Below are positions 44,556 through 60,302 of a stretch of 64,000 nt of DNA, piece after piece. The position numbers and the translations under genes were made by a program. The notes under the pieces are model-generated. The model did not search any database and had not been told where the DNA came from. It saw nothing but the letters and a program-made list of their open reading frames with translations. Position 1 is the first letter of the stretch, and each line of letters opens with the position of its first letter. Source of the stretch: Bdellovibrio sp. (GTDB taxonomy: Bacteria > Myxococcota > SpSt-1050); NCBI GenBank assembly GCA_020725805.1, contig DYEF01000016.1, positions 1 to 64,000 on the forward strand, given 5' to 3'.

Positions 44556-45002
44556 CTACATTTTTGCTGCTAATTTACTGTTTGTCTCTCTGAGTCTCTT
44601 GCTCATAACCCGTGCAATATTTATGACAACCATCGTAAAACCGTTTCTGTAAATCTTGGCAAATGAATGCAGGTTTTCGGAGGTAAGGACTAGTGCCTTC
44701 ACATCAGTTTTGGCCCTTGCTGTGGCACTTCTCATCTCCTTATCAATCAGAGACATCTCCCCGAAGAAATCACCGGATTTCAATACTGCAATGGGTTTGA
44801 GTTTGCCCTCCGCATCCTTCCTCAGGATTTCTATCTCTCCTTCTATAATCACATAGAGCGAATTACCCGGCTCTGCCTCATAGAAAACGATATCCCCTAC
44901 CTTATATTCCTTAAGCTGCGATATCTCGGCAAGATATTCAAACTCTTCAGGCAACAGATTTTCAAAAAGAACAGATTTTTGCAGAATTTCTAACTTTTCC
45001 AT
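44556..45002 (-). CDS. Cyclic-nucleotide-binding domain protein
   Basis: LFENLLPEEFEYLAEISQLKEYKVGDIVFYEAEPGNSLYVIIEGEIEI...GDFFGEMSLIDKEMRSATARA. Confidence 0.88.
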   Translation of the reverse strand: MEKLEILQKSVLFENLLPEEFEYLAEISQLKEYKVGDIVFYEAEPGNSLYVIIEGEIEILRKDAEGKLKPIAVLKSGDFFGEMSLIDKEMRSATARAKTDVKALVLTSENLHSFAKIYRNGFTMVVINIARVMSKRLRETNSKLAAKM

Positions 45003-45029
45003 CAGTCTCCTCCTGACAAGAAATCAAAT

Positions 45030-46055
45030 CTATGTTTCCTGTGTTATTCCCTTCCTGCCTTTCAGGAAAAAATCATCTATTCTTGAATCCTCTTCTTCGC
45101 TGATTTTCTTTCTGTCTCCAGCGAGAGGTTCAATAAAACTAACTCCCTTTGACCTGTCGACCTGATAAATACAGAGAGCCCTTATCTCTATATTGTAATT
45201 GTCAAGGTCGGTTATCAGAGGTACGCAATATATCATCTGTGCATTCTCTTTCTGCTGCCAGTACAGGAATTCATCCTCTGCAATACACTCGAATTTTTCG
45301 CGTGCAAGTCTCAAAAGCTCCTCAATATACTTCTCATCCTTCTCGCGCTCCGAATTCAGCTGTTCCTGTTCACTCTGTTTTTCCATGGCCTTTCTGGTAA
45401 AATAATTACTCTCTCTCAAAAGCCTTTCGGCATCTCTCTTGAATTTTTTTGATTTTGCCTGTGCCTCTGCGACTTTCAGATTGTATTCGATAGATATACC
45501 CCATATCATTTCAACTTCTTCCCAGAGCTTCTTCTTCTTGGCGGCCTCCCGCTCATAAAGCTCGCTGATTTTGGCAAACTCCTTATTCAACGACTCGAGT
45601 GTCTGTTCCTTGTTTTTGAGAGTGGTTCTGAGATTAATTACCTCCTGCCTGTCGGAGGCCGAAGAAAGCCTTTCACGCAATGTGTTGATCTCGGACCTTA
45701 CCGTCTCCAGTTCGTGGTCGAGCGCCCCTACCTTGAACCAGAGTTCCGAAACCTCCACACGCTTACTTTCGAATCTCGCCACCGCCTCATAGGACTTATT
45801 ATCCATATCGCTTGCCTCGGCTGTCCACTTGGCTGCAAGCGCATCCATCTGAGAACTCTCTTCAATCCTGTCGAGCGCCCTCTTCTGAACCAGATTGGCA
45901 TTGAACCTGTGATTGTTCTCCTCTGCCATTATCTTATCAATCTCAGAGGTGATATTGATTATCTCTTTCTGTTTCTCACTATATTTTCCCCACCACTCCT
46001 TAAAGGCGGGAGATTCCAGAAGATTTTTGATTTCCTTTAGATATTTTGCCTTCAT
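45030..46055 (-). CDS. Coiled-coil protein of unknown function
   Basis: Long heptad-rich segments; in tight leftward operon. Confidence 0.7.
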   Translation of the reverse strand: MKAKYLKEIKNLLESPAFKEWWGKYSEKQKEIINITSEIDKIMAEENNHRFNANLVQKRALDRIEESSQMDALAAKWTAEASDMDNKSYEAVARFESKRVEVSELWFKVGALDHELETVRSEINTLRERLSSASDRQEVINLRTTLKNKEQTLESLNKEFAKISELYEREAAKKKKLWEEVEMIWGISIEYNLKVAEAQAKSKKFKRDAERLLRESNYFTRKAMEKQSEQEQLNSEREKDEKYIEELLRLAREKFECIAEDEFLYWQQKENAQMIYCVPLITDLDNYNIEIRALCIYQVDRSKGVSFIEPLAGDRKKISEEEDSRIDDFFLKGRKGITQET

Positions 46056-46057
46056 AA

Positions 46058-57796: not shown

Positions 57797-58586
57797 CTAC
57801 CGGTTTTATCTCCACATCAAATCTGACCGCCGGCCTGTCCTTGAGGTCAGTAGTCAGACTCCCCTTTTCGTATGCTACAACCTTTACTTTCGTTATTTTA
57901 CCTTCCTCGACATAAAAAGTGTAACTGGATTTTACCTTGAACTTATACTGATTCAGATATGAAAAGAGACCGAATCCGTTACCTCTGTAAACCAGATATA
58001 CGCTGACTGTATGATTGCCCGGGACCATACTCGACGACGGAAGTATTTCAAAGATATCTGTGTTCTCCAGCGAGCCGTCCTGATTGACCTTACTGAAGAT
58101 CTGGGTTCCGTCAAGTGAGAAGGAAATGGACTCAATCTTAAAGGAGGAGCCCATCTGGTTGTTGAAGAGCATATTTATCTTGGCACCCGATATCTTGCCC
58201 ATAAGGACGGTCTCCTGCAAGAGTGTAAGCCTTGCCTTGGACCTGAAAACCCGCTCTTTCAGTTCGTTTACCTTCTCCTCGAGATTCTTTATCTGAATGG
58301 TATAAGCCTCATTCATAACATTGGCATCATCTCCTACCTGAGCCTTCGGTGCCGTCTGGGGAGCTGTATCCGAGTTCTTCACGTCGTCGGCCTGTTCTGC
58401 CTTAACCTCGGTAACCGGCTGGGCAGGGGTGGTATTCTGTGAAGGATTTCCCTGTGCAGACACCAGAGACGGGCAGATAATAATTAAAACAATACAATAA
58501 AGAACAGGTTTTCTGAATATGCAGGCCATTCTTAAACCCCTTTCGAGTATAAGACAATATAGGGCTTTTAACAAAATAAAATCCAA
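57759..58586 (-). CDS. Secreted protein of a family seen beside myxobacterial TPR genes
   Basis: Signal peptide near MACIFRKPVLYCIVLIIICPSLVSAQ; FSLDGTQIFSKVNQDGSLENTDIFEI...GNHTVSVYLVYRGNGFGLFSYLNQYKFKVKSSYTF. Confidence 0.6.
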   Translation of the reverse strand: MDFILLKALYCLILERGLRMACIFRKPVLYCIVLIIICPSLVSAQGNPSQNTTPAQPVTEVKAEQADDVKNSDTAPQTAPKAQVGDDANVMNEAYTIQIKNLEEKVNELKERVFRSKARLTLLQETVLMGKISGAKINMLFNNQMGSSFKIESISFSLDGTQIFSKVNQDGSLENTDIFEILPSSSMVPGNHTVSVYLVYRGNGFGLFSYLNQYKFKVKSSYTFYVEEGKITKVKVVAYEKGSLTTDLKDRPAVRFDVEIKPVVEEKKSIPVSSK

Positions 58587-58631
58587 ATGTCAAAAAAGAA
58601 ATAACATTTTATTTAAAACATTCATTATTAC

Positions 58632-60302
58632 CTATTTAACAGGGTTTGCCTTCAGGGTAACCTTGCCGTTTTTTATCATTACATCCCGGTAATTGCCGTT
58701 CTTCATAAGTTCTGCCTTTGTTGCCTTGATCTTCTCGAGAAAGTTATCGAAGTTGAGATTTTCTATGGACTCACCATTGTCAAGCCTCATAGAAACATAT
58801 TTATCAAAGACCTTCCTGAATTCGTCGAGGTCGGTTGCCTTGGCAACCTGTCTGGCCCTGTCCAGTTCCTCAATCTGTTCAAGGGATGCAACCATTGTGG
58901 CTTCCGGATTATACTCTTCCGCCCTTTCATCCTCAATCAGCTCCCCTACATCCTCGGAAGAAAGTTCATTCCCTACAAATATCTCGCCGGACATAGGTTT
59001 TGGTACGGCAGACGGGATATCCGTACCACCATTCGTACTCTTTACCTCGGTGATAGCAGCCGGCTTTGAATCCTGAACTGAAGGCTTTGGTTTAATCTCC
59101 TGTGAAACCGGCTTTGGGCTTATCTGGGGAACCTTTATCTCACCTGTAAAAGTCCTTCTGATATCTTCCTTCGGACCTGCATCCGAGAAAATAGTCGATG
59201 CCTTGGCGGGAGTCGCCACCTTCTCCCTTGCCACAAAGAGCAGTTTATTTATCATCCGCACAAGTTCATCGAACGGAGACGGTATCCTGTTTTCGGGAAT
59301 CTGGACAGAAAAATTACCCTTGATTGCAGGGAGAAGACCGTCCTTTATCAGGTTTACATTGGAATAGATTGTCCGTGAGATACTGAAAGATACGACTATG
59401 CCAATAATCAGAACCCCTATCAGAACCACGAGTACAACAAACTGAATATCCTTCAGCTCGGAGAACCTGCCCGCAAGCTGTGAAGTAACTGCCATTTTTA
59501 TATCTTTTCCCGGTACGAAGTCCTGAAAGACAGTAATCATAGCCGGTATGTCCGATGGGAAATACGGACTCTCCTTCCCCTTCAGTCTCCCGTGCAGAAG
59601 CACCTTGTCTTTTGCCTGGAGTATATCCACAAGCACCTCGGGAGCAGTCTGCCTGAATGTAGATCCGATGAGGTTATCCTGTGAAAAGATACTGATATCA
59701 AACGATGTTACATCCCTGATACTGAATGCTAGAGAATCATCGATAACCTTAACCACAATGACCGAACCTGCAACGGCGTTATCCATAAAGACAGGGGCGA
59801 GCGAGATAATATAGATCTTGTTTTTGTGTGTAAAAATGTCACAGGAGATATTGTTTTCCTTAACTTTGGAGAATAGCTCGGAAGAGATGATAATATTCAG
59901 AATCTCATCCTCAACCAGCGATATCAATGCCTTATCCGCAATGTCATAATAGGCAAGTATATACTCCGTCTTGGGATTGAAATTCAGTTCGAGTTTACCA
60001 ACAATAACCGAATGCATTTTAAGTTTGTCAATCTGTCCCTTCAGATTTGTTATCTTCTTCTTCTTCATCTCATCCTGAACAATGCTTATCTGATTGGCGA
60101 TATTTACAGCCTTGAGTCTGTTTGAGAGCCTGAAGTTGTCGAACACCTCATTTAATCTTCCGGTTGCGCCCAGAAGTTCGGTCTTACTGTTTTCGAGCAC
60201 CATCTTATATGACCCGTAGAATATAAAAAGGGCAAAACAGAAGACAGTTGCAATCATTATAAACGGGATGAGAAACCATAATTTAAATTTAAGCATAGGC
60301 AA
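58632..60302 (-). CDS. Membrane protein with periplasmic sensor-like domain and MXAN_5187-type C-terminal domain
   Basis: Two TM segments flanking about 270 aa; C-terminus FRKVFDKYVSMRLDNGESIENLNFDNFLEKIKATKAELMKNGNYRDVMIKNGKVTLKANPVK. Confidence 0.65.
   Translation of the reverse strand: MPMLKFKLWFLIPFIMIATVFCFALFIFYGSYKMVLENSKTELLGATGRLNEVFDNFRLSNRLKAVNIANQISIVQDEMKKKKITNLKGQIDKLKMHSVIVGKLELNFNPKTEYILAYYDIADKALISLVEDEILNIIISSELFSKVKENNISCDIFTHKNKIYIISLAPVFMDNAVAGSVIVVKVIDDSLAFSIRDVTSFDISIFSQDNLIGSTFRQTAPEVLVDILQAKDKVLLHGRLKGKESPYFPSDIPAMITVFQDFVPGKDIKMAVTSQLAGRFSELKDIQFVVLVVLIGVLIIGIVVSFSISRTIYSNVNLIKDGLLPAIKGNFSVQIPENRIPSPFDELVRMINKLLFVAREKVATPAKASTIFSDAGPKEDIRRTFTGEIKVPQISPKPVSQEIKPKPSVQDSKPAAITEVKSTNGGTDIPSAVPKPMSGEIFVGNELSSEDVGELIEDERAEEYNPEATMVASLEQIEELDRARQVAKATDLDEFRKVFDKYVSMRLDNGESIENLNFDNFLEKIKATKAELMKNGNYRDVMIKNGKVTLKANPVK

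What the first reader, a model, noticed from the sequence alone, without database searches (positions are those of the whole stretch)
44556..60302. Glt/Nfs-AglRQS-like envelope motor cluster
Seen: one leftward run encodes TolQ + two TolR, a FHA-like/TM/AgmX-PglI C-terminal protein, a small exported protein, a TPR lipoprotein, a 1226-aa TPR protein, a second TPR/coiled-coil protein, a conserved exported protein and an MXAN_5187-type membrane protein. Established: in Myxococcus, gliding (GltD/AgmU, GltE/AglT, GltG/PglI plus AglRQS) and spore-coat (Nfs) machines combine these families. Inference: a related proton-driven trans-envelope machine with motor and scaffold genes fused in one operon. The added coiled-coil, cNMP-binding and ABC genes may be lineage-specific parts. 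Function could be motility, polysaccharide movement or something else.
Basis: partly seen in the sequence, partly recalled or inferred. Interest (0 to 1): 0.8.

Follow-up and report, generated by a model that had tools for sequence, protein, structure and literature searches.

The report
MglA-linked third Agl/Glt-type envelope motor
This is a proton-driven machine spanning both cell membranes, a cousin of the Myxococcus gliding and spore-coat machines but separate from them, which most families of the phylum keep as one gene cluster, usually next to the cell-polarity switch MglA/MglB, and whose job nobody knows.

Summary
Window 44556-58529 (-) is a tight operon encoding a TolQ-TolR-TolR motor, an FHA-TM-TonB transducer (GltG type) and GltC/D/E/F-like periplasmic proteins: all seven genes of the published "Group B core complex". 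It is neither the Glt nor the Nfs machine. The same genome has separate loci for both, and phylogeny puts the window's GltD with the uncharacterised M. xanthus cluster G4 (MXAN_1922) and its motor with the equally uncharacterised M2 (MXAN_3003-5). New points: (1) the order exp275-GltC-D-E-F-TolQRR-GltG-coiled coil-cNMP recurs across Myxococcota families, so those accessory genes are not lineage-specific; (2) Myxococcaceae and others keep the motor elsewhere, G4 and M2-type motor co-occur almost perfectly, and the relocated motors nest within the window-type clade, so G4+M2 is probably one split machine; (3) mglB-mglA lies directly upstream in about 20 of 27 families, M. xanthus included, though not in the window's genome; (4) one TolR partner often lacks its proton-binding Asp, never both. 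The MXAN_5187-like and ABC genes do not belong. Best reading: an MglA-linked, pmf-driven trans-envelope transport machine; cargo unknown. New variant of a known kind.

The parts
57759..58529 (-). exp275: exported protein (signal peptide, 40-residue coiled coil, beta-sandwich); conserved first gene of the cluster. Homologues are labelled 'dihydrolipoamide acetyltransferase', evidently a misannotation. ATG at 58529 preferred to the listed TTG at 58586
   Evidence: 33-row alignment; AF2 mean pLDDT 80; names of homologues; no hit of its profile in Glt/Nfs loci
55439..57739 (-). GltC-type TPR/coiled-coil exported protein (start probably ATG 57739; listed ORF to 57796)
   Evidence: NF033756 71.8 bits, below the 450-bit equivalog cut-off; syntenic orthologues
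51755..55435 (-). GltD-type exported TPR protein, 1226 aa
   Evidence: orthologues in at least 25 of 31 sampled Myxococcota families; GltD tree places it in the G4 clade
49595..51748 (-). GltE-type TPR lipoprotein (lipobox LFSC), 717 aa
   Evidence: NF033758 81.7 bits; synteny
49327..49602 (-). GltF(CglF)-like small exported protein, 91 aa, motif EGxIQKPQAxYILxRSxL
   Evidence: alignment with GltF positions of Glt/Nfs loci; profile hits in Glt and Nfs loci between gltE and gltG
48628..49296 (-). TolQ/AglR-type proton-channel subunit
   Evidence: PF01618 84.7 bits; TolQ tree
48021..48608 (-). TolR1/AglQ-type subunit, TM Asp present (NLVPYLDIV)
   Evidence: PF02472 58.2 bits
47428..48003 (-). 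TolR2/AglS-type subunit, TM Asp present (NITAMMDMM)
   Evidence: PF02472 40.9 bits
46058..47416 (-). GltG-type transducer: cytoplasmic FHA-fold domain, one TM helix, long linker, TonB-like C-terminal domain
   Evidence: NF033768 119 bits; AF2; Foldseek hits to FHA and to TonB C-terminal domains
45030..46055 (-). CC341: cytoplasmic coiled-coil protein, conserved accessory
   Evidence: profile hits in the same position in many families
44556..45002 (-). cNMP-binding single-domain protein, conserved accessory; phosphate-binding cassette FFGEMSLIDKEMRSATARA
   Evidence: PF00027 82.1 bits; alignment; synteny
58632..60302 (-). MXAN_5187_C-domain membrane protein; neighbour, NOT part of the conserved unit
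   Evidence: NF041621 51.8 bits; absent upstream of exp275 in the sister species (L242) and in the other families
42799..44491 (-). ABC-2 permease and ATPase; conserved neighbours only within the window's own genus
   Evidence: found next to cNMP in L067 (same genus) only

Best explanation
The operon encodes a complete, pmf-driven trans-envelope machine of the Agl/Glt class. TolQ and a TolR1/TolR2 heterodimer make a rotary proton channel. GltG is held in the inner membrane next to it, with an FHA domain in the cytoplasm, and carries force through its TonB-like domain to periplasmic GltC/GltD/GltF, the outer-membrane lipoprotein GltE and exported exp275. The coiled-coil and cNMP proteins act as cytoplasmic assembly or control parts. 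It is the orthologue of M. xanthus G4 (MXAN_1922 region) plus motor M2 (MXAN_3003-5), which together are probably one split machine separate from Glt gliding and Nfs spore-coat assembly. In most families, including Myxococcus, the genes lie directly downstream of mglBA, so its assembly or polarity is probably set by the MglA GTPase; in the window's genome mglBA is at another locus. Shown: composition, orthology, synteny, co-occurrence, folds. Inferred: proton drive, force transfer, MglA control, pairing of M2 with G4, and that it moves a surface or envelope cargo.
For: Families and folds. Conserved order in 20-kb loci of 27 further families and in named records. GltD tree: the window clade (100) holds the Myxococcus G4 copy; own C16 groups with Myxococcus Glt (98), own C40 with Nfs (99). 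TolQ tree: all window-type TolQ plus M2 form one clade (98/97), M2 nested inside (99/92), AglR and own C67 outside. Co-occurrence of G4 GltD and window-type TolQ: 133 of 145 genomes concordant; 65 of 65 in the family of Myxococcus (f9), where the two are unlinked. MglA upstream on the same strand in 65 of 90 loci with enough flank, including a named M. xanthus record, L155. MXAN_3003 did not bind GltG or NfsG in two-hybrid, and the MXAN_3004 mutant glides and sporulates (PMC3858216, PMC3169522), as expected if M2 serves another scaffold.
Against: No phenotype is known: G4 and M2 mutants of M. xanthus show no motility defect, and M2 no sporulation defect (PMC3169522, PMC3858216), so 'machine' rests on homology. 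mglBA is not next to the cluster in the window, in f2 or in several other families. Two genomes (G012, G013) have a window-type motor without a G4-type GltD, so M2-type motors may also serve other scaffolds. No outer-membrane barrel is encoded in the operon.
Confidence: 0.75

Rival explanations
1. It is the organism's Glt gliding machine (or a Glt/Nfs hybrid) and drives gliding.
For: Shares GltC, GltD, GltE, GltF and GltG types and the motor; the family is mgl-linked, and MglA controls gliding in M. xanthus.
Against: Own C16 carries the true Glt locus: GltC 571 bits over cut-off, CglF 103 and CglE 98.9 over cut-off, an OMP_myx barrel; AglRQS-type motor at C67. Window proteins fall below the Glt cut-offs and outside the Glt clade. 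The MXAN_1922 mutant glides normally (PMC3169522).
Confidence: 0.06
2. It is a Tol-Pal-like housekeeping system that maintains outer-membrane/peptidoglycan attachment or aids division, with no transport or motility role.
For: TolQ-TolR-TonB-like transducer chemistry; the GltD TPR repeats resemble tol-pal YbgF/CpoB (TIGR02795 136 bits); near-universal retention in the phylum.
Against: No TolB or Pal among the operon proteins; TolQ is far from the other, more divergent TolQ copies of the genome (C68 and C24); several genera have lost it outright (g30, g44, g60, most of f14); linkage to the polarity switch mglBA.
Confidence: 0.15
3. M2 is not the G4 motor: M2-type motors are a general paralogue serving several scaffolds, and co-occurrence reflects shared ancestry and genome size.
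For: Some genomes carry several M2-type TolQ copies (G042, G019, G039); G012 and G013 have the motor without G4 GltD; relocated motors form their own subclade (96/85), so they could be an ancient duplicate rather than the moved original.
Against: Lost together repeatedly, even inside one genus: g34 has both in G107 and neither in G037, G067, G069, G072, G083, G106; M2-type TolQRR sits beside G4, divergently, in G006 (L097).
Confidence: 0.2

Closest known systems
M. xanthus clusters G4 (MXAN_1922 region) and M2 (MXAN_3003-5), named in PMC3169522, function unknown
   Same: Orthologous by tree and synteny (locus L074); same scaffold gene content
   Different: In Myxococcus the motor is at a distant locus and CC341 is missing; mglBA sits directly upstream, which it does not in the window's genome
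Agl/Glt 'Group B core complex' of Geobacter, Gammaproteobacteria, Betaproteobacteria and Fibrobacter (PMC3169522)
   Same: All seven genes (gltC, gltD, gltE, gltG, aglR, aglQ, aglS) in one region
   Different: Adds a GltF-like gene, exp275, CC341 and cNMP; the published extra gene of the core complex is said to have no Myxococcales homologue and could not be compared here
Glt gliding machine + AglRQS (M. xanthus G1, G2, M1)
   Same: GltC/D/E/F/G types and the AglRQS-type motor
   Different: Lacks GltA/B barrels, GltH, GltI, GltJ, GltK; separate clade; genuine Glt locus elsewhere in the same genome
Nfs spore-coat machine (M. xanthus G3)
   Same: Paralogous scaffold set
   Different: Separate clade; own Nfs-like locus at C40; has its own motor linked, where Nfs uses AglRQS
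Tol-Pal / TonB-ExbBD
   Same: 5:2-type TolQ/TolR motor and TonB-fold transducer
   Different: Two different TolR partners, FHA domain, TPR scaffold; no TolB, Pal or TonB-dependent receptor in the operon

Membership tests
Agl/Glt Group B core complex | gltC, gltD, gltE, gltG and aglR, aglQ, aglS homologues in a single genomic region | tested here: met
   definition from PMC3169522
Agl/Glt Group B core complex | AglR-type protein contacts GltG-type protein | not testable with these tools
   no complex prediction on hand; two-hybrid needed
Agl/Glt Group B core complex | proton-binding Asp in the TolR TM helices | tested here: met
   window has Asp in both TolR1 and TolR2
M. xanthus G4/M2 group | GltD-type protein in one clade with the Myxococcus G4 copy, apart from Glt, Nfs and G5 | tested here: met
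   (SH-aLRT 100)
M. xanthus G4/M2 group | TolQ in one clade with M2, apart from AglR | tested here: met
   (98/97; M2 nested at 99/92)
M. xanthus G4/M2 group | mglB-mglA directly upstream (typical of the group, not defining) | tested here: not met
   seen in about 20 of 27 families but not in the window's genome, where mglBA is on C44
Glt gliding machine | scores above NCBIfam equivalog cut-offs for GltG, GltE, GltC, CglF | tested here: not met
   177 vs 650, 81.7 vs 225, 71.8 vs 450, 15.3 vs 90
Glt gliding machine | phylogenetic placement with M. xanthus GltD/AglR | tested here: not met
Glt gliding machine | GltA/B barrels, GltH(CglE), GltI, GltJ, GltK encoded with the system | tested here: not met
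   none among the operon proteins; CglE, CglF and a barrel are at own C16
Nfs machine | phylogenetic placement with NfsD | tested here: not met
   own C40, not the window, groups with Nfs
Tol-Pal | TolB and Pal encoded with TolQRA | tested here: not met

The most novel reading that the evidence does not exclude
This mgl-linked operon is the original client of the MglA/MglB polarity switch in the phylum: MglA first controlled this machine and was later borrowed by Glt gliding and type IV pili. Its motor shows that a TolQR-type rotary channel can run on one proton-binding Asp per TolR heterodimer, since one partner's Asp is lost in many lineages but never both.
Probability: 0.25. Interest if true: 0.85.

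Novelty: new variant of a known kind. Interest (0 to 1): 0.62.

Why it matters
Two M. xanthus loci that have had no function since 2011 (G4 and M2) become one testable machine with a predicted motor-scaffold pairing. It would be a third Agl-type machine, kept across most Myxococcota families, including genomes where no Glt-class GltC was found. The conserved mglBA linkage gives a lead on what MglA controlled before, or besides, gliding. The reciprocal loss of one TolR aspartate offers natural variants for testing how 5:2 proton motors work, against the finding that AglQ D28N stops the gliding motor.

Tried and rejected
Considered and rejected: (1) Glt or Nfs identity (trees, cut-offs, separate loci in the same genome). 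(2) The MXAN_5187-like gene and the ABC pair as parts (no conservation beyond own species or genus). (3) A shared C-terminal 'GKIDxE' tag on GltD and GltE: matched in 4 of 130 and 1 of 104 homologues, so not conserved as such. (4) exp275 as a GltA/GltB homologue: its profile finds nothing in Glt/Nfs loci and the model is a beta-sandwich, not a barrel. (5) Naming the exp275 fold: no PDB match below E 1e-3, only weak transthyretin-like and adhesion-like hits. (6) Promoter and terminator scans gave consensus matches of no use. (7) The literature searches found no paper in the held library linking mglBA to G4; the supplementary figures of PMC3169522 could not be read. Not examined: relatives outside Myxococcota, beyond what PMC3169522 reports.
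Full report
WHAT IS THERE. The window is contig C9 of a 3.29 Mb, 98% complete draft genome. Its relatives in the collection correspond to records titled Deltaproteobacteria, Myxococcales and Myxococcota. On the minus strand, genes run without real gaps (-38 to +30 bp from exp275 to cNMP) in the order exp275, GltC-type, GltD-type, GltE-type lipoprotein, GltF-like, TolQ, TolR1, TolR2, GltG-type, coiled coil (CC341), cNMP. 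Family scores support the names but lie below the Glt equivalog cut-offs: GltG 177 bits (650 needed), GltE 81.7 (225), GltC 71.8 (450). The AgmX/PglI tail is clear, 119 bits against 40. The AlphaFold model of GltG shows a beta-sandwich N-domain, one TM helix, a disordered linker and a C-terminal domain. Foldseek matches these to FHA domains and TonB/TolA C-terminal domains at probability about 1, though no E-value is below 1e-3. The small protein aligns with the genes that sit between gltE and gltG in the Glt and Nfs loci, i.e. GltF, which PMC4488436 equates with CglF.

NOT GLT, NOT NFS. The same genome has at C16 a GltC of 571 bits, over the 450-bit cut-off, with CglF (103 vs 90), CglE (98.9 vs 70) and an OMP_myx barrel. 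At C40 it has an Nfs-like set (GltC 235 bits; Myxococcus Nfs scores 207). At C67 it has an AglRQS-type motor. In the GltD tree the window falls in a fully supported clade with the copy at 2.33 Mb of a Myxococcus-type genome (G051), while C16 groups with Glt and C40 with Nfs. By order along the chromosome and by gene count that copy is cluster G4: mglA is MXAN_1925 and mglB MXAN_1926 (PMC4316618), the next two genes are exp275 and gltC, and then comes gltD, which PMC3169522 lists as MXAN_1922 of G4. The genome-to-locus-tag mapping is inference, but the count fits exactly.

CONSERVED ORDER. Profiles built from the window cluster and 17 syntenic loci were run on 20-kb stretches from relatives and on 80 named loci. 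The order exp275-GltC-GltD-GltE-GltF-[TolQ-TolR1-TolR2]-GltG-[CC341]-[cNMP] recurs. Loci with a G4-type GltD were seen in 27 families besides the window's own. The motor lies inside the cluster in about 18 families, counting the window's, and next to it but divergent in G006. It is absent from the cluster in the family of Myxococcus (f9) and in f4, f14, f23, f26, f27, f29, f30 and f31. The MXAN_5187-like gene is missing upstream of exp275 even in the sister species.

MOTOR AND SCAFFOLD BELONG TOGETHER. Window-type TolQ proteins form one clade (98/97). The Myxococcus M2 motor nests inside it (99/92), and AglR with its kin lies outside. Among 145 genomes, 133 agree in having or lacking both a G4-type GltD and a window-type TolQ (102 both, 31 neither, 12 discordant). 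Of the 12, six are G4-positive on inspection (cut contigs or divergent GltD: G001, G006, G011, G024, G030, G032; G024 less surely), and G046 has a TolQ fragment on the GltD contig. G012, G013, G026, G063 and G146 stay open, two of them incomplete genomes. In f9, where the two loci are unlinked, 65 of 65 agree; in f14, 16 of 17. The Fisher p-value (6e-20) ignores relatedness; the better argument is repeated joint loss, for example within genus g34, where G107 has both and six relatives have neither. Published data fit: MXAN_3003-5 is the only other complete Agl set in M. xanthus, it is not needed for gliding or sporulation, and MXAN_3003 does not bind GltG or NfsG (PMC3858216).

MGL LINKAGE. 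The two genes directly upstream of exp275 in the Myxococcus G4 locus are MglA and MglB (MglB: Roadblock domain and MglB family). The same arrangement, same strand, is found in 65 of 90 loci with enough flank (some genomes are counted in both sets) and in about 20 of 27 families (plus L204 for f7), including a record titled Myxococcus xanthus AM003 (L155). In the window's genome mglBA is elsewhere (C44, MglA 81% identical to that of Myxococcus). I found no paper in the held library that reports this linkage; PMC4316618 says the gene neighbourhoods of the broad MglA groups vary widely.

MOTOR ASPARTATES. In window-type motors TolR1 has Asn (once Ser) in place of the TM Asp in many families, while TolR2 keeps it; in part of f5 the reverse holds (TolR2 Ala/Gly). 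No motor lacks both; the window and all M2-type motors examined keep both. The expected number of double losses is small (about one in the 38 sampled), so 'never both' is suggestive, not proven.

HOW IT MOST LIKELY WORKS. Shown: parts, folds, order, orthology, co-occurrence. Inferred: proton flow through TolQ/TolR1/TolR2 moves GltG, whose TonB-like domain pulls on GltC/D/F, GltE and exp275; the FHA domain, CC341 and cNMP receive cytoplasmic signals (the cNMP protein keeps a canonical phosphate-binding cassette); MglA sets where or when the machine assembles. The cargo is unknown. Several genomes have G4 without any GltC over the Glt cut-off (G003, G025, G045, G053, G054), and others have Glt without G4 (G016, G033, G037, G049), so the two machines are functionally separable.

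NOVELTY. The class of machine, and the existence of G4 and M2, are known. New here are the pan-phylum operon, the G4-M2 pairing, the mgl linkage, the conserved accessory genes and the aspartate pattern. I rate it a new variant of a known kind.

Noticed in passing
L073, L079, L084, L087, L090, L096, L108, L110 (TolR genes); window 47428-48608 for comparison: One of the two TolR-like subunits often lacks the proton-binding TM Asp (TolR1 Asn, or TolR2 Ala/Gly in part of family f5), never both; the window keeps both.
   Followed up: partly
L217: Two Glt-type clusters in tandem: GltD-GltE-GltF-GltG followed by a full exp275...TolQRR-GltG cluster.
   Followed up: no
L071 / L140 (G002 C114): A second, orphan G4-type GltD (44% identical to the window's) with no other cluster genes within 12 kb.
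   Followed up: no
G000 C16, locus L220:13970-15988: Protein with a LIDNSGSM (MIDAS-like) motif upstream of the true Glt locus, weak match to a MIDAS-family adhesin (43 bits); possible counterpart of the CglB adhesin.
   Followed up: partly
window 49595-51748 and 51755-55435, C-termini: GltE and GltD both end in acidic tails with GKIDxE-like motifs; some orthologues end in similar GKLxxDEK tails, but the exact motif is not conserved.
   Followed up: partly
exp275 homologues: Database entries call this family 'dihydrolipoamide acetyltransferase'; nothing in sequence or model supports that name.
   Followed up: yes
window 60364-63999: Very large fn3-containing protein (runs to about 1825 aa in the contig) just upstream of the MXAN_5187-like gene.
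   Followed up: no
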